A stretch of DNA of 36,858 nt from an uncultured Clostridia bacterium (GTDB lineage: Bacteria > Bacillota > Clostridia > Peptostreptococcales > Anaerovoracaceae). The notes beneath the pieces were generated by a model. The model was not told where the DNA came from, did no database searches, and saw only the letters and a list, made by a program, of their open reading frames with translations. Shown one piece after another: positions 2,780 through 33,895 of the stretch. The position numbers and the translations under genes are program-made. The stretch's first letter is position 1. Each line of letters opens with the position of its first letter. The stretch spans positions 1 through 36,858 of the forward strand of contig CALZFA010000003.1 in assembly GCA_945644815.1 (NCBI GenBank). The letters run 5' to 3'.

Positions 2780-3520
2780 ATGGAGAGGTTGTTTTTTCGC
2801 GGAAGCATAAAGCCGGACTGTGAAACTTCGGCAGCAGGAGTTATGCTGGACAGACAGAAGTATGTTATAGGTGTTACAGGCATAGGAGCAGGTGCGGGAG
2901 CCACTTTCACAGCCATGGGAATGGCATTCATAATGGGAAAGATGACTTCGGGAGTGACATACCTGGAGGGGCAGCCTCACAGGAAGGACTGTGTTTCACC
3001 ATACAGACTGCTGGCGGTGGACAGAACTTTCAGGCACATAGCAGAAAAAGACAGGAGGCCTGCAGCAAGACTGACTTTATATAAAAAAGTAAACTGGCAG
3101 ATTTACAAGCCCTGGGAGCAGGAAGACGGGAGCTGTTTTCAGGACTACAGGCAGGCAGTGGGAAAAATAATAATAGTGGACAATCCTTACTGCTTTGATG
3201 ACCTTGACCTTGTGGTTGCCGTTGTAGATCCTTTCCCGCCCGCGGTTTCAGCAGGCCTTGAAACCTTCGGAATGCTCAGGCGGTTTCATGATAAGGAGAG
3301 TGCTGCGCGCAGGAAAGTTATCTGGCTTCTAAATAAATCCGACGGAAGCGTGGCCCGTCGTGAAACAGAGAAATACCTGAAGATTAAATTTGATTTTGAG
3401 CAGAGGTTAATTCCGCAGGAGATTTTTTACAGATCGGCTTACAGCTGTACACAGCCCTTTTTTATGTATGAAGCAGAGGGTCTGAGCAGCATGGCACTTA
3501 GTATCCTTGAGGAGATATAG
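2780..3520 (+). CDS. MinD/ParA (TadZ-like) P-loop family protein with degenerate Walker A
   Basis: RBS gggagg upstream. N-terminal beta-strand + loop 'VIGVTGIGAGAGATFTAMGMAF', Walker-B-like 'KIIIVDNP', then 'DLVVAVVDPFPPAV' and 'VIWLLNKSD', consistent with a SIMIBI/MinD fold. Confidence 0.55.
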   Translation: MERLFFRGSIKPDCETSAAGVMLDRQKYVIGVTGIGAGAGATFTAMGMAFIMGKMTSGVTYLEGQPHRKDCVSPYRLLAVDRTFRHIAEKDRRPAARLTLYKKVNWQIYKPWEQEDGSCFQDYRQAVGKIIIVDNPYCFDDLDLVVAVVDPFPPAVSAGLETFGMLRRFHDKESAARRKVIWLLNKSDGSVARRETEKYLKIKFDFEQRLIPQEIFYRSAYSCTQPFFMYEAEGLSSMALSILEEI

Positions 3521-23210: not shown

Positions 23211-23840
23211 TCACTTTTCTTCAAGAAAATCTTTGAGCTTTTCTAAGGCCCTCTTCTCTATACGCGATACATATGAACGGCTTATGCCCAAAAACTCTGC
23301 TATTTCCCGCTGAGGAAGCGGATCACCGCCCTCAAGACCGTAGCGGCAGATGATCACGGTTTTTTCACGTGGGGTCAGAGCCGTGTTTATGGCATCGTGA
23401 AGTTTGCCTACCTGGATTTTTAAACTGATCGAATCTACAATTTCGTCGGCATCAGTACCGAGTATATCTATAAAACTTATTTCATTGCCGTCTTTGTCGG
23501 TGCCGATAGGAAGGCTGAGGGAAACTTCCTGTTTTATCCGTTTGGAGGCTCGTATGCTCATCAGTATTTCGTTTTCAATGCATTTAGCAGCATAGGTGGC
23601 CAGTCTGGCGGATTTTTTGCTTGTATATGTATTGACGGCTTTTATAAGGCCGATGGTTCCGATAGAGATAAGGTCGTCCTGAGTTACCATGGGACCGACA
23701 TATTTTTTCGATATATGGGCAACCAGCCTGAGGTTGCGTTCTATAAGTATGAGTCGTGCATCCGGGTCGTTTTCTTCAAGACGTTTTACATAGTATCTTT
23801 CTTCTTCTTCTGTAAGCGGATTGGGAAAGGAACTGCTCAT
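23211..23840 (-). CDS. sigK: RNA polymerase sporulation sigma factor SigK
   Basis: 'ERNLRLVAHISKKYVGPMVTQDDLISIGTIGLIKAVNTY', 'ARLATYAAKCIENEILM', 'DKDGNEISFIDILGTDADEIVD', 'REIAEFLGISRSYVSRIEKRALEKL', SigK-like throughout. Confidence 0.88.
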   Translation of the reverse strand: MSSSFPNPLTEEEERYYVKRLEENDPDARLILIERNLRLVAHISKKYVGPMVTQDDLISIGTIGLIKAVNTYTSKKSARLATYAAKCIENEILMSIRASKRIKQEVSLSLPIGTDKDGNEISFIDILGTDADEIVDSISLKIQVGKLHDAINTALTPREKTVIICRYGLEGGDPLPQREIAEFLGISRSYVSRIEKRALEKLKDFLEEK

Positions 23841-24308: not shown

Positions 24309-25019
24309 ATGGAAAAAGAGAAAGCGAGGGAAATTTTTATGAAAATCAAAGCTTTGCCACGTAATGAGAGACCTGTAGAAAAAACCGTCAGCAAGGGTGT
24401 ATCTGCTTTATCAAATTCAGAGCTTCTGGCCATTCTGCTGGGCTCGGGGACACGGGAAAAATCGGCAATAGGACTTGCCGAGGATGTTATCTCAAAGGAT
24501 ATAGAGGGTATAAGCTATCTGGCAGAAAGTTCCGTTCAGGAGCTTATGTCCATAAATGGCATAGGACAGTCAAAGGCTGCCAGAATTATGGCCGCAGTAG
24601 AGTTGGGAAAGCGTATTGCCACTGCCCCCAGAACTAAGCGAATGGGAGTTGAGAGCTCGGAGAATATTGCCCGGATGTTCATTGAGGATATGAGGTACGA
24701 GAAAAGAGAGCTGTTCAAGGCCTTGCTGCTTAATCCCAGAGGTGAGATAATTTCGGTGGAGACAATTTCTGTAGGCGAGCTTACCAGCACGCTGGTTCAC
24801 CCCAGAGAGGTTTTTAACCAAGCAGTAAAAAAGAGTGCTGCCGGGATTGTTTTTGTACATAATCATCCAAGCGGCAATCCGGAGCCCAGCGGAGAAGATA
24901 TAAAAACCACCGAAAGACTTTCGGCATGCGGAAAACTCCTGGGAATTGTGGTTATAGACCATATCATCATAGGCGACGGGCAGTACTGCAGCATGCAGAG
25001 CCTGGGACTCATGGGCTGA
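24309..25019 (+). CDS. radC: RadC family (JAB/MPN-domain) protein
   Basis: 'RNERPVEKTVSKGVSALSNSELLAILLGSGT', JAMM motif 'IVFVHNHPSGNPEPSGEDIKTTERL'. Confidence 0.93.
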   Translation: MEKEKAREIFMKIKALPRNERPVEKTVSKGVSALSNSELLAILLGSGTREKSAIGLAEDVISKDIEGISYLAESSVQELMSINGIGQSKAARIMAAVELGKRIATAPRTKRMGVESSENIARMFIEDMRYEKRELFKALLLNPRGEIISVETISVGELTSTLVHPREVFNQAVKKSAAGIVFVHNHPSGNPEPSGEDIKTTERLSACGKLLGIVVIDHIIIGDGQYCSMQSLGLMG

Positions 25020-25100
25020 CCGGAAGGTCAGGGAGGCTGACAAAGCGGAGCAGAAGAACAATAAAAAATGATACGTAATTCAAAATGCGGAGGTATTAAA

Positions 25101-26144
25101 ATGTGCAGTTTTTTTAAAGCTAAGGATATGGGAATTGATCTTGGTACAGCCAATACACTGATTTATGTAAAGGATGGAGGAATTATTCTGGAGGAGCCGT
25201 CCATTATTGCAGTTGAAAGCCATGGTGAAAAGACTCTGGCTGTGGGCTCAGAAGCCAAGGAAATGCTTGGAAAGGCGCCTCAGAACATTTCCGTGATAAG
25301 GCCTCTTCGGGACGGGGTAATTTCCGACTTTGACAGGACGGCGGACATGCTTCGGAGCTTTCTCGAAAAAGCACTCAAAGCCAGAAAAATCAGAAATTTC
25401 AGAGTGGTTGTGGGTGTCCCAAGCGGCGTTACCGAGGTGGAGAAAAGAGCTGTAAGCGAGGTTGTCAGACAACTGGGTGCGACCGAGGTATTTATTTTGG
25501 AGGAACCTATGGCTGCTGCCATCGGAGCAGGAATGGATGTTGACGGTACCACCGGCTGCATGATAGCCGATATAGGAGGAGGTACCACGGACATAGCTAT
25601 TATAGCCCTTGGAGGCATTGTCTGCAGCACTTCCATAAGACATGCCGGTGATAAAATAAACGATGCAATTATACAGTACATGCGAAAGAGACATGCTTTG
25701 CTTATCGGAGAGCGTACTGCCGAGATTCTTAAGATCAACATCGGATGTGCCTGTATGGATGAAGACGAACAGGGCAATGAAATCATAAAGACTATGAACG
25801 CAAGAGGCAGGGACATCATTTCCGGACTCCCTAAGACTTTGGAAGTAACAAATAAGGATATGATGATCGCCCTTCAGGAATCAATGGATATAATAATTGA
25901 CGGGATTAAGGGAACTATAGAAAAAGCTCCGCCTGAAATTGCGGCTGATATCGCTGACAAGGGAATGGTTCTTTCCGGCGGCGGCGGAATGATCTGCAAT
26001 CTTGACAAGCTTATCAACAAGAGAACAGGAATGAATGTTACCATTGCCGAAAATGCCTTTGAGGCAGTCGCCCTGGGAGCAGGAAAGAGCTTGGAAGACA
26101 TAGAAAAGCTTAAATTATATGCTCAGAACGGCAGAAAGAGATAG
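25101..26144 (+). CDS. mreB: Rod shape-determining protein MreB
   Basis: 'DMGIDLGTANTLIYVKDGGIILEEPSIIAV', 'MIADIGGGTTDIAIIALGGIV', 'MVLSGGGGMICNLDKLI'. ATG 25101 behind cggagg. Confidence 0.95.
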   Translation: MCSFFKAKDMGIDLGTANTLIYVKDGGIILEEPSIIAVESHGEKTLAVGSEAKEMLGKAPQNISVIRPLRDGVISDFDRTADMLRSFLEKALKARKIRNFRVVVGVPSGVTEVEKRAVSEVVRQLGATEVFILEEPMAAAIGAGMDVDGTTGCMIADIGGGTTDIAIIALGGIVCSTSIRHAGDKINDAIIQYMRKRHALLIGERTAEILKINIGCACMDEDEQGNEIIKTMNARGRDIISGLPKTLEVTNKDMMIALQESMDIIIDGIKGTIEKAPPEIAADIADKGMVLSGGGGMICNLDKLINKRTGMNVTIAENAFEAVALGAGKSLEDIEKLKLYAQNGRKR

Positions 26145-26155
26145 GAGTTTGATTT

Positions 26156-26974
26156 ATGCGCTGGATCAGAGAGCACAAGTTAATATCTGTTTTGCTCATG
26201 GCACTTGTGGTATTGTCGGTTATATTCGGGGTTTCCGTTATAAGCGGTGGTGAAGGCAATGGTTTTACGGGTGTTATAAATAAAGGTGTTTCTGCCGTCT
26301 CCGGAGGACTGTCATCGGCAGCAAAGGCCATAAGAGACAATGTGACCGGTATTTTTTCCTATAAATCGCTGCAGGAGGAAATCGACCGCCTTGAGGAAGA
26401 AAATCAGCAGCTGAAGAAAGAACTTGCCGAAGTAAGCCTTGACAGACAGGACCTGGAGCAACTGGAGAATCTCAGCAAAGCACTTGATTTTGAATACACC
26501 GATAAGGAATTCAAGCTGGCAGCGGCAGACATTACTTCTTTGGACGGTTCAAACTGGACTAATGTGTTTACAATTGACAGAGGGACGGAATCTGGAATTG
26601 AGAAGGGAGACGCCGTAGTAAACGGAATGGGCCTTGTGGGAAGAATACAGGAAACCGGCAAGGGCTGGTCTAAAGTGGTGTCACTCATAGATGAAAACTG
26701 TGACGTAAGTTTTAAGCTGGTTCGGGACAGAAAACAGCTGGGAATAGTGTCCGGCAGTGAAGGTGGAGGCATAAGCGGTTATATGATGGATGCCGAATCA
26801 ACGGTATCGGAGGGAGACATTATAATTACATCCGGTCTGGGCATTTACCCTGAAGGACTGTATATTGGGAATGTGAAGAACGTTACCTATAACAGCAATA
26901 CTCTTATGAAGGAAATAACAGTGGAACCGGCTGTGAATTTTAAAGGCCTCGAAAAGGTTGCGGTGATAATATGA
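26156..26974 (+). CDS. mreC: Rod shape-determining protein MreC
   Basis: N-terminal TM, coiled coil, 'NWTNVFTIDRGTESGIEKGDAVVNGMGLVGRI', 'IITSGLGIYPEGLYIGNVKNV'. Confidence 0.94.
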   Translation: MRWIREHKLISVLLMALVVLSVIFGVSVISGGEGNGFTGVINKGVSAVSGGLSSAAKAIRDNVTGIFSYKSLQEEIDRLEEENQQLKKELAEVSLDRQDLEQLENLSKALDFEYTDKEFKLAAADITSLDGSNWTNVFTIDRGTESGIEKGDAVVNGMGLVGRIQETGKGWSKVVSLIDENCDVSFKLVRDRKQLGIVSGSEGGGISGYMMDAESTVSEGDIIITSGLGIYPEGLYIGNVKNVTYNSNTLMKEITVEPAVNFKGLEKVAVII

Positions 26975-27471
26975 AATACTGGAAAGCGGCAGTAGCCTTT
27001 ACGGTGGCATTTCTCTTGCAGACATCGCTGCTGAATGTAATAAGTATAGCAGGATACACGCCTAATCTGCTGCTGTGTCTTGTGATAGTGTTTTCGTTTC
27101 TTTATGAGAACGGCCTGTACGGAATTGTATTCGGCGCGGCGTTCGGTCTTATATACGACATCTGCTTCAGCAGTGTGCTGGGTCCTACTCCGCTGGCTCT
27201 GCTGGTTTGTGCGGCAGTGATTTTAGTCGTGCGCGAATATGCAAATATAGAAAATATAGTAAATCTGTGGGTTGTTTCTGTGGTATCACTGGTAATTTTC
27301 TATTTTATAAGCTGGGGGCTGTTCCGACTGGGAGGAAATCCGGAAAGCTTTGTTTACGTACTTAAAAGACTTCCGTGGACAGGACTGTATTCACTGATTG
27401 TAATAACCGGGATATATCTTGTTCTGATAAGGAAAATAACAAAACATCGAAAAGACAGGTATTACAGATGA
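26971..27471 (+). CDS. mreD: Rod shape-determining protein MreD
   Basis: Small multi-TM protein between mreC and PBP2; 'GLYGIVFGAAFGLIYDICFSSVLGPTPLALLVCA'. Confidence 0.9.
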   Translation: MKYWKAAVAFTVAFLLQTSLLNVISIAGYTPNLLLCLVIVFSFLYENGLYGIVFGAAFGLIYDICFSSVLGPTPLALLVCAAVILVVREYANIENIVNLWVVSVVSLVIFYFISWGLFRLGGNPESFVYVLKRLPWTGLYSLIVITGIYLVLIRKITKHRKDRYYR

Positions 27472-30245
27472 GTAAAAAAATTCTTCAGTCCAGGTACTAT
27501 CAGCTCGTATTGATCATCATCATCCTTATGCTGGCATTATGCATAAGGCTTTTTGTGCTGACCGTAATTCAAGAAGACAAATGGGCTGAAGCTGCCGTAA
27601 ACCAGAACACAAAAGAAATGGTCATATCTGCACCCAGGGGAGAGATACTTGACAGATACGGAAAAGTACTTGCAACCAACAAACAGGTTTTCACAGTTAC
27701 TTTCAACGTAAGCGGAATGGGGACCAATGACATAAACCGGTCAGCATACTCACTGGTGAAGCTTCTGGAAAAAAACGGTGACGAATATGTGGACAACTTC
27801 CCTATTGTATTTAGTGAAAATGGGGAGTTTAAATATACTTATGACGAAAACAGGACAAAGTGGCTGACGAGCATCGGCCTTTCGGCTGATGCAACCTGTG
27901 AGGATGCTTTTAATAAGTTAAGGCAGGATTACGAAATCGATCCCGACCTTGACAGGTATGATGCCCTGGAAGTCATGCAGGAGACGCACGGTGTGTGGCC
28001 TCCTGTTAATATCAGAAGCATGACCTTTACCTATGATTCCAGAAAAAAGGCTTTTCTGGAGAAGTACGGTCTTGATACAGATCTGACCGCAGAGGAGGCG
28101 TTTAATCAGCTTAGAAAGAAGTATAGTCTTGACGAGCCTCTTTACGAGGGTGAAGATGTGCTCTCGGACGGAGAGGTCAGAAAGATTTTCACCGTAAGGG
28201 AAGAAATAAAGAATATAGGGTATAACAAGTACCGTTCAAGCACCATAGCCGGCGATGTCAGCGATGAAACGGTTGCATATGTTGAAGAAATGGGAGATAC
28301 GCTAAGAGGCGTCGAGATTGCTTCGGAGACCGTAAGAGTTTACCCTGAAGGAACCCTTCTTTCCCATGCACTTGGATATATGGGAAGTATTTCCGACAGC
28401 CAGTATGATGAATATGTAAATGAAAAAGGTTATAATGCTGATGACCTTATCGGAAAGGACGGACTCGAGGCATCTCTGGAGTCTGTGCTTCATGGCACAG
28501 ACGGCATAAAGACTGTTTTGGTAAACAGTAACGGCGACTATATCGAGACTCTTGGTGAAACGGAGCCGGTAGCAGGTAAAAACGTATATCTGACCATTGA
28601 TTCAGACCTGCAGAAGGTGGCAGAGGAAGCACTCGAAAAAGCCATTAAAGCAACTGCATCAGGTGGTGTTTTCGAGAGCAAGTACGGCAATATGAAGCTG
28701 AGAAAATACGAAAACTGCGGTTCAGGCGCTGCGGTTGCAATAGATGTGGAAACAGGAGATGTTCTGGCAATGGCCAGTTATCCTGATTATGACCCAAACA
28801 TATTTGCAGAGGGAATTTCCAATTCTGCATGGGCTTCAGTACAGAGCACCAATCCGCGTGACTCACTGGCACCTACACCTCTGTATAACAATGCGACGAG
28901 AACTTCTGTGCAGCCTGGTTCTACATTCAAGCCAATTACGGCGGTTGCTGCTCTGCAGGCAGGACTGAATCCCAACAGAAGAATTTATGATAAAGGCTAT
29001 ATCAAACTGGGAGGAAGAACCTTCGGATGCAGCTTGTGGAACAACTACAGGGGAAGTCACGGTTATGAAACTCTGGTTACCGGAATACAGAATTCCTGCA
29101 ACTTCTACTTCTACTGTATAGCTACAGGTACGGACTGGAACAATATGTCCTCTCTGGGATATAAAGAAGAAATGTCAGTAGAAAAGATAATGAAGGTGGC
29201 TTCAGAATTCGGTCTGGGAGAAAAGACGGGAATAGAGCTTTATGAAACAGTAACGCCTCTGGCCTCCGCAGAACGAAAAATGAAGGGTATGAAGCAGTCC
29301 CTGTGGAGTCATCTTTACTACAACAGCGAAAAGTATTGGCCGGAATCCACCATCAGCGATGATGCGAAACTCAGAGAAGAAATCAGCACCATCACCGGAT
29401 GGACCGAAGAAAATCCTTCCAGAGGAACTATAATAAACAGGATAAAGGAACAGACTACAGTTTTGGAATCTAAGGTGGAGACTATTACCGATGTCTGCAA
29501 ATATTCGTACTTCAATCAGGCAGCCTGGACTACCGGTGATGAATTTAATATTTCTATCGGACAGGGCGATAATGCTTATACGCCTTTGCAGATGGCCAAT
29601 TACGTGGCAACCCTGGGAAATGACGGCAAAAGAAATCAGGTGAGCATCATAAAGGGAATTGAAGGTGAGGGTCTTAATGAAAAAAATGAGGCCTACCAGA
29701 TAGATGTTGAGGAGAACGACCTGGATAAGGTGTTAGAGGGTATGAGACTGGTTGCCAAGAAAGGTACCCTGGCAAGCTGTTTCTCCAGATTTCCTGTGGA
29801 GGTTGCAGGAAAGACCGGTACTGCAGAAAGATCGGGTTACATCAATCCTAAGGATGAGGTGACATATGTGAAGAAACATCTTTCGTCTATTGCACCGGGA
29901 GTTTCATGGAAAGAAGTTCAGCAAACCATGACAAAGATGATGAAAGAGGACCCTAAGAAGTATCCTACAGAAAATGACACTGTGGATGATGCTCTCATTG
30001 CCGCCAGTGACAAGAAAGTAACTTATGCGGACATTAATAAATATAAGGATACCTATGACCACTTTGCCTGGACAATTGCCCTGGCTCCGGCGGACAACCC
30101 CAAGATAGCTGTTGCAGTGCTGCTGATTCAGGGCGGTGTTTCATCCAATGCCGCTCCTGTGTCCAGAGAAATAATTGGAGAATATCTTGATGTGAAGAAG
30201 ACAACCGAATCCGGAGTACTGGACTTTTCAACCAAAATGAATTAG
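27468..30245 (+). CDS. mrdA: Penicillin-binding protein 2 (class B transpeptidase of the elongasome)
   Basis: 'SAPRGEILDRYGKVLATNK', active-site 'PGSTFKPITAVAAL' (STFK), SxN 'NSCNFYF', 'VAGKTGTAERSG'. ATG 27468. Confidence 0.93.
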   Translation: MSKKILQSRYYQLVLIIIILMLALCIRLFVLTVIQEDKWAEAAVNQNTKEMVISAPRGEILDRYGKVLATNKQVFTVTFNVSGMGTNDINRSAYSLVKLLEKNGDEYVDNFPIVFSENGEFKYTYDENRTKWLTSIGLSADATCEDAFNKLRQDYEIDPDLDRYDALEVMQETHGVWPPVNIRSMTFTYDSRKKAFLEKYGLDTDLTAEEAFNQLRKKYSLDEPLYEGEDVLSDGEVRKIFTVREEIKNIGYNKYRSSTIAGDVSDETVAYVEEMGDTLRGVEIASETVRVYPEGTLLSHALGYMGSISDSQYDEYVNEKGYNADDLIGKDGLEASLESVLHGTDGIKTVLVNSNGDYIETLGETEPVAGKNVYLTIDSDLQKVAEEALEKAIKATASGGVFESKYGNMKLRKYENCGSGAAVAIDVETGDVLAMASYPDYDPNIFAEGISNSAWASVQSTNPRDSLAPTPLYNNATRTSVQPGSTFKPITAVAALQAGLNPNRRIYDKGYIKLGGRTFGCSLWNNYRGSHGYETLVTGIQNSCNFYFYCIATGTDWNNMSSLGYKEEMSVEKIMKVASEFGLGEKTGIELYETVTPLASAERKMKGMKQSLWSHLYYNSEKYWPESTISDDAKLREEISTITGWTEENPSRGTIINRIKEQTTVLESKVETITDVCKYSYFNQAAWTTGDEFNISIGQGDNAYTPLQMANYVATLGNDGKRNQVSIIKGIEGEGLNEKNEAYQIDVEENDLDKVLEGMRLVAKKGTLASCFSRFPVEVAGKTGTAERSGYINPKDEVTYVKKHLSSIAPGVSWKEVQQTMTKMMKEDPKKYPTENDTVDDALIAASDKKVTYADINKYKDTYDHFAWTIALAPADNPKIAVAVLLIQGGVSSNAAPVSREIIGEYLDVKKTTESGVLDFSTKMN

Positions 30246-30275
30246 TAAAAACAGTTAGTGATAAAGGAGACTGCC

Positions 30276-31007
30276 ATGAATACTTCAGGCAAAACTATTA
30301 TAATAGCATCCGGTAAAGGGGGAACCGGCAAAACCATGTTTGCGGCAAATATAGGCGCAGCCATGGTAAAACGAGGCCACAAGACGGTTCTTGTAGATAT
30401 GGATACCGGGCTCAGAAACCTGGACCTTTATCTGGGCCTTGAAAACAATGTGGTATACGATGTGAGTGATGTGCTTAACGGCGTCTGCCGTATTAAACAG
30501 GCGCTGATAAAGGATAAAAGATTTCCCGGACTGTTTTTTATGGCGGCTTCACCGAAACCTGATGACGGTGAAATTACACCTCTCCACGTAAAGGTTCTTT
30601 GCGACAAACTGAAAAAGGTTTTTGAATATGTCATAATTGATGCTCCGGCAGGCCTTGATGACGGATTAACTATTGCCATGGGAGGAGCTGACGAGGTTAT
30701 AATGGTAATTACGCCTGAATATTCATCCATCCGTGACTGCCAGACAGTAACCATGACTTTAAAAGAACTCGGCATACGAAATGTCTATTATATACTGAAC
30801 AAAATAAATACCAAGCTGATGAAGCAGGGGTTTGCTCCTTCGTTAAAGGAATTTCCTAAAAGCATAACGGAGCGTATGATAGGCCTGGTGCAGCGGGATG
30901 AGAATATTCATATTTCCACTAATATGGGCGTGCCTATTGTATTTATGAAGGAATCCTATATAAGCAGAAACTTTGACAACATTGCAGGGAGAATTGAAAA
31001 CCTGTAG
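30276..31007 (+). CDS. minD: MinD-type ATPase (C-terminal membrane-targeting helix apparently absent)
   Basis: Deviant Walker A 'ASGKGGTGKTMFAANIGAAM', 'VDMDTGLRNLDLYLGLEN', 'VIIDAPAGLDDG'; ends at '...NFDNIAGRIENL'. ATG 30276 behind aaaggag. Confidence 0.85.
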   Translation: MNTSGKTIIIASGKGGTGKTMFAANIGAAMVKRGHKTVLVDMDTGLRNLDLYLGLENNVVYDVSDVLNGVCRIKQALIKDKRFPGLFFMAASPKPDDGEITPLHVKVLCDKLKKVFEYVIIDAPAGLDDGLTIAMGGADEVIMVITPEYSSIRDCQTVTMTLKELGIRNVYYILNKINTKLMKQGFAPSLKEFPKSITERMIGLVQRDENIHISTNMGVPIVFMKESYISRNFDNIAGRIENL

Positions 31008-31060
31008 AAACTAAACTGTTGCTTTGGCGCAGCCTTTAAATTACACAAAAAACAATAAAC

Positions 31061-31098
31061 AAAAGAGCTCCTTGCATAATGTGATATGGAGCTCTTTT
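31061..31098. terminator. Bidirectional terminator between minD and rodA
   Basis: aaaagagctcc (31061-31071) / ggagctctttt (31088-31098). Confidence 0.75.
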
Positions 31099-31114
31099 AG
31101 CATATAATCCGGCT

Positions 31115-32221
31115 CTAAAACTTTATGATCTTGCTGTTTATACCCACATTGATAATAACGCCTACTGAAATCATACTGGCGATAACGGAAGTCCCCCCGC
31201 CGGACAGGAAAGGCAGGGTAATACCGGTAACGGGCATCATTCCCATGGTCATTGCGATGTTTTCAAATGCCTGGAACAGGAACATGGCTGTAAAACCTAC
31301 TACTATAAGGGCACCGTACAAGTCTGAAGCTTCTCGTATGATGCTCGTAAAGCGGGTCATCATCAGGCCGTAGATTATGATTACAACGGCGCCGCCGATA
31401 AAACCCAGTTCTTCTACCACTACAGAAAAGATGAAGTCTGACTGCTGAACCGGTATAAAGTCCAGACTCTTCTGGGTACCGTTAAAAAGACCCTTTCCGA
31501 AGAAGCCGCCGGAACCTATGGCAACCTTTGACTGCCACACCTGATAATTTCCCGAAAGACTCAGATTATCGGGGTGGAGAAACGCTTCAATTCTTTCTTT
31601 CTGATAGTCATCCAGAAATTTATATACAACAGGTATTGCCGCCAGTGATATAAGCGCCGACTTGATAAAAAGCTTGTAGTCAATACCTGCAAAAAAGACC
31701 ATGAATATCCACATTACAATGTAAACAAGAGCGCTTCCCAGATCCTCTTTGAGCACTACAAGAATAATAGGAGCGGCTACAAAGAGAGCCTTTATCACAC
31801 CTGCAAGCTTAGTCAGTTCCTCCCTGCGCTCTGACAGGTAGCCCGCCATGATAAGCACGAAAAGTATCTTGACGAATTCCGACGGCTGCAGAGTGGTAAT
31901 TTTTAAATCAATCCATGCTCTGGAACCATACATTTCGTGACCCAGCCCCGGCACATAAACCAGCAGCAGCAGAAACATGGCGGCTATGTACAGATACCTC
32001 TCAAGACCCATGAAAAAACGATAGTCAATGCGCTGAATAACAATTAACAAAACAAAGCCCAAGACATAAGAAACAGCCTGTACAATAACAGGTCTGGCAA
32101 GTACTATACCGTCGTCGTAGACGGTGCTCTCAAGCATTAAAATACTAATGATCCCCAGCATGCCGACAAGCAGCAGTATAATTTTGTCCGCACTTTTCAG
32201 AGGTGCAAAAAATTTGTTCAT
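31115..32221 (-). CDS. rodA: Rod shape-determining protein RodA (SEDS glycosyltransferase)
   Basis: SEDS motifs: 'GSRAWIDLKITTLQPSEFVKILFVLIMAGYLS', 'LKEDLGSALVYIVMWIFMVFFAG', 'QSKVAIGSGGFFGKGLFNGTQKSLDFIPVQQSDFIFSVVVEELGF', 'LPFLSGGGTSVIASMISVG'. Confidence 0.93.
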   Translation of the reverse strand: MNKFFAPLKSADKIILLLVGMLGIISILMLESTVYDDGIVLARPVIVQAVSYVLGFVLLIVIQRIDYRFFMGLERYLYIAAMFLLLLVYVPGLGHEMYGSRAWIDLKITTLQPSEFVKILFVLIMAGYLSERREELTKLAGVIKALFVAAPIILVVLKEDLGSALVYIVMWIFMVFFAGIDYKLFIKSALISLAAIPVVYKFLDDYQKERIEAFLHPDNLSLSGNYQVWQSKVAIGSGGFFGKGLFNGTQKSLDFIPVQQSDFIFSVVVEELGFIGGAVVIIIYGLMMTRFTSIIREASDLYGALIVVGFTAMFLFQAFENIAMTMGMMPVTGITLPFLSGGGTSVIASMISVGVIINVGINSKIIKF

Positions 32222-32359: not shown

Positions 32360-33895
32360 ATGCTCAAAATAATTATAACAGGAATTATTGCGCTTGTTTT
32401 TGGCGCATTGATCGGATATATATACAGAAAAAATGTAGGCGAAAAAGCTATAGGCAGTGCTGAACAAAAAGCTAAAAACCTGATACTTGACGCCGAAAAC
32501 AGATCCGAAAGCATAAAAAAAGAGGCTTTGCTTGAGGCCAAGGAGGAGGCTCACAGAATCAGAAGCGATGCAGAGCGCGACGCCAGAGAAAGAAGACAGG
32601 AAATTCAGCGTTCAGAGAGAAGAATGATTCAGAAGGAGGAATCCTTAGACAGAAAAATCGAGAATATTGAGAAAAAAGAAGAAAATATTACACAGAAAGA
32701 ACAGTCTTTGATAAACAAACATAAGGAACTGGATGCGGCTATTTCGCGCCAGATGGAAGAACTGGAGAGGATTTCCGGCTACACCGTGGACGAGGCTAAG
32801 GCAATCCTGCTTGCCAACACAGAAAAGGAAGTAAGACATGAAGCTTCCGTGATGATCAAGGAAATTGAGTCCAAAGCTAAAGAAGAAGCGGACAAGAAGG
32901 CAAAATACATCATTACCAATGCCATTCAGAGATGTGCTGCAGACCATGTGGCAGAGAGTACGGTTTCTGTAGTTTCACTTCCTAATGACGAAATGAAGGG
33001 CAGAATCATAGGACGTGAGGGGAGAAATATCAGAGCTATAGAAACTCTCACCGGAGTAGATCTCATAATCGACGATACTCCGGAGGCAGTCATCCTTTCC
33101 GGGTTTGACCCTGTCAGAAGGGAAGTAGCCAGAATTGCCCTTGAAAAACTCATTGTGGACGGTCGTATTCATCCGGCCAGAATCGAGGAGATGGTTGAAA
33201 AGGCCGAGAAAGAAGTCAACGCCATAATCAAGGAAGAAGGCGAACAGGCTACTTTCGAGGTAGGCATTCATAACCTTCATCCTGAGCTTGTGAAGATTCT
33301 GGGAAGACTTAGATACAGAACATCATACGGACAAAATGTGCTTAAACATTCTATAGAGGTTGCCCATCTTGCAGGCCTGATGGCGGGCGAATTGGGCCTG
33401 GATGTCAAGCTGGCTAAGAGAGCCGGCCTTCTGCATGATATAGGCAAGGCTCTTGACCATGAATTTGAAGGAACCCACGTGGATATCGGTATTGATATAC
33501 TGAGAAGATATAAGGAATCCGAAGCAGTTATTAACGGTATGGCTGCTCATCACGGAGATTATGAACCTAAGAGCATGGAGGCGGTGCTTATAGCAGCGGC
33601 CGACGCTCTCAGTGCAGCAAGACCGGGAGCAAGAAGAGAAACTCTTGATGCATATATCAAGAGACTTGAGAAGCTTGAAGAAATAGCGAACACCACTCCG
33701 GGTGTTGAAAAGTCATTTGCCATACAGGCAGGCAGGGAGATAAGAATAATCGCTAAGCCTGAGGATGTAAACGACGAGGAAATCGTATTTCTGGCAAGAG
33801 AGATTTCGAAGAAGATTGAGTCTGAGCTTGAATATCCGGGCCAGATCAAGGTAAATGTTGTGAGAGAAACGAGAGCAATCGATTACGCCAAGTAG
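32360..33895 (+). CDS. rny: Ribonuclease Y
   Basis: N-terminal TM + long coiled coil, KH '[31 protein letters not shown]', HD '[25 protein letters not shown]'. ATG 32360 behind aggaggt. Confidence 0.96.

What the first reader, a model, noticed from the sequence alone, without database searches (positions are those of the whole stretch)
30246..31114. Lone MinD in the elongasome locus: no adjacent minC or minE and no evident C-terminal membrane-targeting helix
The order mreB-mreC-mreD-PBP2-minD is visible. In many Clostridia this locus reads mreBCD-(pbp2)-minC-minD-minE-rodA. Here only about 30 bp separate the PBP2 stop (30245) and minD ATG (30276), so minC is absent. A terminator directly follows minD, so minE is absent, and rodA is inverted. 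The MinD keeps KGGTGKT and IIDAPAG but stops at '...SRNFDNIAGRIENL', where E. coli and B. subtilis MinD continue into an amphipathic membrane-targeting helix. The bases after the stop do not look like a frameshifted continuation. A soluble, partnerless MinD co-transcribed with PBP2 would have to work differently from the canonical Min system, perhaps as an elongasome regulator.
Basis: partly seen in the sequence, partly recalled or inferred. Interest (0 to 1): 0.66.

Follow-up and report, generated by a model that had tools for sequence, protein, structure and literature searches.

The report
MinD that outlived its Min partners
In a whole family of gut and oral anaerobic bacteria the cell-division switch protein MinD has lost both partner proteins and its membrane anchor, yet evolution keeps it even where the wall-elongation genes beside it have vanished, so it must do a job that the textbook Min system does not explain.

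Summary
Window 30276-31007 (+) encodes a 243-aa MinD (TIGR01968, 242 bits; cut-off 213) between PBP2 and an inverted rodA, without MinC, MinE or membrane-targeting helix (MTS). It is not a quirk of this MAG. In the window's GTDB family (Anaerovoracaceae, judged from named relatives) MinC_C, MinC_N and MinE are above cut-off in 0 of 119 genomes, while a clear MinD is in 113. In the rest of the order, MinC is in 151 of 180 genomes and all 29 MinC-neighbouring MinDs inspected end in an MTS. A sister family (3 genomes) has the same locus and an MTS-less MinD. The ATPase core is conserved; the face that binds MinC and MinE is eroded. The 'elongasome regulator' idea fails: mreBCD-pbp2-rodA were lost from the locus in at least 5 lineages, leaving radC-minD-rny, and MinD stays under purifying selection there. 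Best reading: a reduced, probably cytosolic MinD switch, most likely still positioning division or another cargo through an unidentified partner, working like MipZ or PomZ. That function is inferred. Lone MinDs recur across Clostridia (28 of 148 genomes sampled lack both partners), so this is the extreme case of a recurrent trend: a new variant of a known kind.

The parts
30276..31007 (+). lone MinD, 243 aa, no MTS
   Evidence: orthologues
30263..30269 (+). AAAGGAG ribosome-binding site of minD
   Evidence: sequence
30309..30335 (+). deviant Walker A SGKGGTGKT (residues 12-20); signature Lys K14 = E. coli K11, K19 = K16
   Evidence: K11 97% and K16 98% conserved in 105 family MinDs
30720..30767 (+). 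helix 7 (residues 149-164), the face that binds MinC and MinE in E. coli; S148, D154, I159 equivalents are S150, Q156, T161 here and eroded across the family
   Evidence: contact residues from PMC6803595
30957..30998 (+). last core helix (residues 228-241), followed by the stop where canonical MinD continues into linker and MTS
31061..31097 (+). intrinsic-terminator-like hairpin between convergent minD and rodA
   Evidence: z -3.5
24309..25019 (+). radC, upstream flank; abuts minD in relatives that lost the elongasome
25068..26144 (+). mreB
26156..26974 (+). mreC
   Evidence: position and synteny
26971..27471 (+). mreD
   Evidence: position and synteny
27459..30245 (+). PBP2 (mrdA); start near 27459 or at GTG 27375
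   Evidence: TIGR03423
31115..32221 (-). rodA/ftsW-family gene, inverted, convergent with minD
32366..33895 (+). rny (ribonuclease Y), downstream flank

Best explanation
This is a true MinD orthologue in its ancestral slot of the mre-min cluster, reduced in the ancestor of this family and a sister family by loss of MinC, MinE and the MTS (shown by comparison). It keeps the ATP-driven monomer-dimer switch (core residues conserved and under purifying selection: shown; the activity itself: inferred). It is therefore expected to be a cytosolic, ATP-gated dimer that no longer recruits MinC or answers to MinE or the membrane, and that contacts a different partner. Most likely it still helps position cell division or another cellular cargo, working like the soluble MinD relatives MipZ and PomZ (inferred). 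It is not a dedicated elongasome regulator, because it outlives the elongasome (shown).
For: MinD identity and fold. MinC_C, MinC_N and MinE above cut-off in 0 of 119 family genomes against MinC in 151 of 180 other genomes of the order. Tail after E. coli position 245: canonical 28-30 residues, family median 4, sister family 11. Sister family: same locus order with inverted rodA and an MTS-less MinD. Family plus sister MinDs form one clade, support 98. ATPase residues K11 97%, K16 98%, D38 99%, D120 100%; MinC/MinE contacts eroded: S148 100 to 40%, D154 100 to 69%, position 159 to polar residues, M193 to 9% (contacts S148, D154, I159 from PMC6803595). Retention after at least 5 elongasome losses; dN/dS 0.02-0.10 in MreB-less pairs. 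DivIVA in 103 of 119.
Against: No partner was identified; genes after minD differ between relatives. No direct evidence that it acts on FtsZ or on division. No strong general shift to a basic, DNA-binding surface: core pI median 5.7, although higher than the canonical 4.9. Some family members lost or greatly changed MinD, so it is not indispensable. D40, needed for hydrolysis, is Asn in 37 of 105, so ATP cycling may differ between lineages. The last core helix is itself amphipathic, and 26 of 105 C-termini pass a crude amphipathic-and-basic test, so weak membrane contact is not excluded.
Confidence: 0.55

Rival explanations
1. Elongasome regulator: a soluble MinD co-transcribed with PBP2 controls MreBCD/PBP2/RodA.
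For: Gene order and a 30 bp gap to PBP2 in the window; the same order in most relatives with an elongasome.
Against: The elongasome genes were lost from the locus at least 5 times while MinD was kept under purifying selection; 32 of 34 MreB-less family genomes have MinD; the slot is ancestral and shared with canonical MinCD. MinD is however more divergent in several MreB-less clades.
Confidence: 0.07
2. Positioning of a non-division cargo or chromosome segregation: MinD recruited to a ParA-like role, as with archaeal MinD2 and MinD4 in motility and shape.
For: ParA/MinD ATPases commonly position cargo (PMC10241942, abstract); archaeal MinD2 acts on shape and motility and localises diffusely (PMC11588486); core pI shifted upward relative to canonical.
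Against: No cargo gene lies next to it; it stays in the mre-min slot.
Confidence: 0.25
3. Ordinary Min system seen through an incomplete MAG: minC/minE missed, or an assembly frameshift cut off the MTS.
For: The MAG is 85.8% complete with 136 contigs.
Against: 0 of 119 family genomes, 67 of them at least 90% complete, have MinC or MinE above cut-off; 105 orthologues lack the canonical MTS; no MTS in other frames.
Confidence: 0.02
4. Decaying relic: MinD lost its function with MinC and MinE and is drifting away.
For: Longer branches than canonical MinD; losses in some genomes; D40 changed in about a third of members.
Against: dN/dS 0.02-0.10 and amino-acid identity higher than RadC and MATE in most MreB-less pairs, intact Walker motifs, retention across the family.
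Confidence: 0.1

Closest known systems
Canonical MinD of MinCD/MinCDE systems (TIGR01968; E. coli, B. subtilis, other families of the same order)
   Same: Profile, fold, Walker A with signature lysine, genomic slot after PBP2
   Different: No MTS, no MinC, no MinE; MinC/MinE-binding face eroded
MinC-less, MTS-bearing MinDs of other Clostridia families (e.g. L169, L175, L186)
   Same: MinD after PBP2 without MinC or MinE
   Different: Those mostly keep an MTS-like or basic tail and are often followed by a gene that looks like mgsA; here the tail is gone family-wide
MipZ (Caulobacter)
   Same: Soluble MinD-superfamily ATPase acting on FtsZ without MinC (PMC4429545, PMC3910319)
   Different: MinD is the far better profile match here; FtsZ or ParB interaction not tested
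PomZ (Myxococcus)
   Same: ParA/MinD ATPase that positions division on the nucleoid without MinC (PMC7993993, abstract)
   Different: No PomX or PomY sought; DNA binding not tested
Archaeal MinD2/MinD4 (Haloferax)
   Same: MinD used outside a MinCDE system; MinD2 localises diffusely (PMC11588486)
   Different: Archaeal lineage, roles in shape and motility

Membership tests
MinD (bacterial, TIGR01968) | Sequence profile above curated cut-off | tested here: met
   242.4 bits against 212.9
MinD (bacterial, TIGR01968) | Deviant Walker A with signature lysine, switch I, Walker B | tested here: met
   K11, K16, D38, D40, D120 equivalents present in the window; family conservation 97, 98, 99, 63, 100%
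MinD (bacterial, TIGR01968) | MinD fold | tested here: met
   AF2 model; Foldseek top hits are MinD, TM about 0.88
MinD (bacterial, TIGR01968) | Orthologous genomic slot (after PBP2 in the mre-min cluster) | tested here: met
   Same slot as minC-minD in relatives, minus minC
Canonical MinCD(E) system | C-terminal membrane-targeting helix | tested here: not met
Canonical MinCD(E) system | MinC partner | tested here: not met
   MinC_C and MinC_N 0 of 119 above cut-off
Canonical MinCD(E) system | Topological factor MinE or MinJ-DivIVA | tested here: inconclusive
   MinE 0 of 119 above cut-off; DivIVA present in 103 of 119; MinJ not sought
Canonical MinCD(E) system | ATP-dependent dimerisation and membrane cycling | not testable with these tools
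   needs biochemistry
MipZ | Best match to the MipZ profile | tested here: not met
   PF09140 32 bits against MinD 242 bits
MipZ | Direct FtsZ inhibition and ParB binding | not testable with these tools
   works-like hypothesis only
PomZ | PomX and PomY partners, nucleoid binding | not tested
   works-like hypothesis only

The most novel reading that the evidence does not exclude
A clade-wide cytosolic class of MinD that has swapped MinC, MinE and the membrane for a new, unknown partner and cargo, with some members (D40N) possibly locked as non-hydrolysing dimers.
Probability: 0.4. Interest if true: 0.75.

Novelty: new variant of a known kind. Interest (0 to 1): 0.52.

Why it matters
MinD is usually explained as a membrane shuttle for MinC. 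A family that discarded MinC, MinE and the membrane anchor but kept the ATPase, even after losing the rod-shape machinery, suggests that MinD has a selectable function of its own, and offers many natural variants in which to find it. No description of this state was found in the open papers searched, which is not proof that none exists.

Tried and rejected
Frameshifted MTS after the stop: none in three frames. Hidden MinC or MinE elsewhere: only sub-threshold fragments. A conserved partner gene downstream of minD: the gap carries different genes in different relatives. A MinC remnant between PBP2 and MinD in lone MinDs of other families: where PBP2 lies upstream, only its end was found there. 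Window ORF 2780-3520, which shows a GAGAGAT P-loop-like motif, as a second MinD-like protein: no Pfam, NCBIfam, PDB or MinD-profile match, and an unusable single-sequence model, pLDDT 32.

Full report
What is there. The window lies in a 1.47 Mb MAG, 85.8% complete, 136 contigs. Between PBP2 (ends 30245) and an inverted rodA-family gene (31115-32221, minus) is a 243-aa ORF at 30276-31007 with a good ribosome-binding site. It passes the curated MinD cut-off (242.4 against 212.9 bits), its nearest solved relatives are bacterial MinDs, and its AF2 model (pLDDT 85.5) matches MinD structures best (TM about 0.88). A hairpin fitting a terminator lies between the convergent genes.

Absence of partners. 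MinC_C, MinE and MinC_N have no match in the window's genome, and across 119 genomes of its family none is above cut-off; the six weak MinC_C matches are fragments of 33-47 profile positions inside ORFs of 374-552 aa. Named relatives (Emergencia, Eubacterium infirmum, E. minutum, E. brachy) point to Anaerovoracaceae. MinD is clear (E below 1e-25) in 113 of the 119; one more is a contig-edge fragment, and five have only weak ParA-level hits. In a sample of 247 genomes of the order, MinC is above cut-off in 151, none of them in this family; I count 67 family members in that sample, hence 151 of 180 others. DivIVA is present in 103 of 119.

Loss of the membrane anchor. All 29 MinC-neighbouring MinDs inspected from the order end in a tail such as GFVSKLRKIFGLAK, 28-30 residues beyond E. 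coli position 245; the 105 family MinDs have a median of 4, and the few longer tails are mostly acidic. Three genomes of a sister family (f9) carry the same locus, inverted rodA included, and MinDs such as one ending RITGEEIPLFNK, that is, just before the MTS. Family plus f9 MinDs form one clade (support 98). I infer a single ancestral loss.

What is kept and what is eroded. Against E. coli MinD, K11, K16, D38 and D120 are at 97-100% in the family. In E. coli, S148, D154 and I159 of helix 7 contact both MinC and MinE (PMC6803595). In the family S148 falls to 40%, D154 to 69%, position 159 becomes polar and scattered, M193 falls to 9%, and position 194 changes from Met to Pro in 81%. The window itself has Q at 154 and T at 159. 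This is what loss of both partners predicts. In 37 of 105 members D40 is Asn; D40A in B. subtilis gives a mainly dimeric protein that cannot hydrolyse ATP (PMC13246001), so some members may not cycle. The window's protein keeps D40 and D152.

The elongasome idea fails. Most relatives read radC-mreB-mreC-mreD-pbp2-minD-rodA(inverted)-rny. In 34 of 119 family genomes the MreB profile finds nothing or only matches at E 1e-9 to 1e-20, which I read as DnaK-type proteins, and 32 of these have MinD. Their locus is radC-minD-rny with the five elongasome genes gone, in nearly all cases examined. On a ribonuclease Y tree these losses need 7 changes, at least 5 forced by well-supported branches; because f9 and the other families have the genes, I read them as losses. 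MinD dN/dS in the MreB-less pairs is 0.02-0.10, lower than RadC in most pairs where both could be computed. dS is often near saturation, so these ratios are approximate.

How general. In 148 genomes of the class, MinD is above cut-off in 104 and MinC in 71, MinE in 72. By my count 34 have MinD without MinC, 28 without either, in about 12 families. Of 20 such loci inspected most keep a basic or MTS-like tail; three (L181, L182, L184) have lost it. Lone MinD is thus recurrent in Clostridia, and this family is the extreme, fully MTS-less case.

How it probably works. Shown: orthology, co-loss of MinC, MinE and MTS, conservation of the ATPase core, erosion of the MinC/MinE face, retention without elongasome. 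Inferred: ATP-gated dimerisation in the cytosol and a new partner. By analogy with MipZ, which inhibits FtsZ directly, and PomZ (PMC4429545), a role in division-site or cargo positioning is the most economical guess. A report that MinD itself binds FtsZ is cited in PMC10482377. No partner was found, and the function remains untested.

Noticed in passing
family MinD alignment; e.g. L083-L087, L125-L126, L128-L130, L132-L138: 37 of 105 family MinDs have Asn at the E. coli D40 position, often with D152 changed too: possible natural hydrolysis-deficient MinDs.
   Followed up: partly
between minD and rodA/rny in L046, L054, L062, L068, L081-L083, L134, L141, L143, L155, L158, L159: The stretch downstream of minD carries different genes in different relatives, like an insertion hot spot.
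   Followed up: partly
L044, L045, L047-L051, L074, L076, L123-L152: mreBCD, pbp2 and rodA lost from the locus at least five times in one family, presumably with loss of rod shape.
   Followed up: partly
L167, L170, L172, L173, L175, L181, L183, L186: In lone-MinD loci of other Clostridia families the gene after minD begins like MNIALIAHDKKKELMVQF and looks like methylglyoxal synthase, where canonical loci have minE.
   Followed up: no
window 23211-23840 (-): SigK-type sporulation sigma factor (302 bits against 252) in a 1.47 Mb MAG.
   Followed up: no
window 2780-3520 (+): Orphan ORF with a GAGAGAT P-loop-like motif directly upstream of an ABC ATPase and a membrane protein that look like ftsEX; no family, PDB or MinD-profile match.
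   Followed up: partly
G255, G293, G299, G308, G301: Family genomes whose best MinD hit is only E 1e-18 to 1e-25: apparent MinD losses, useful as contrasts.
   Followed up: no
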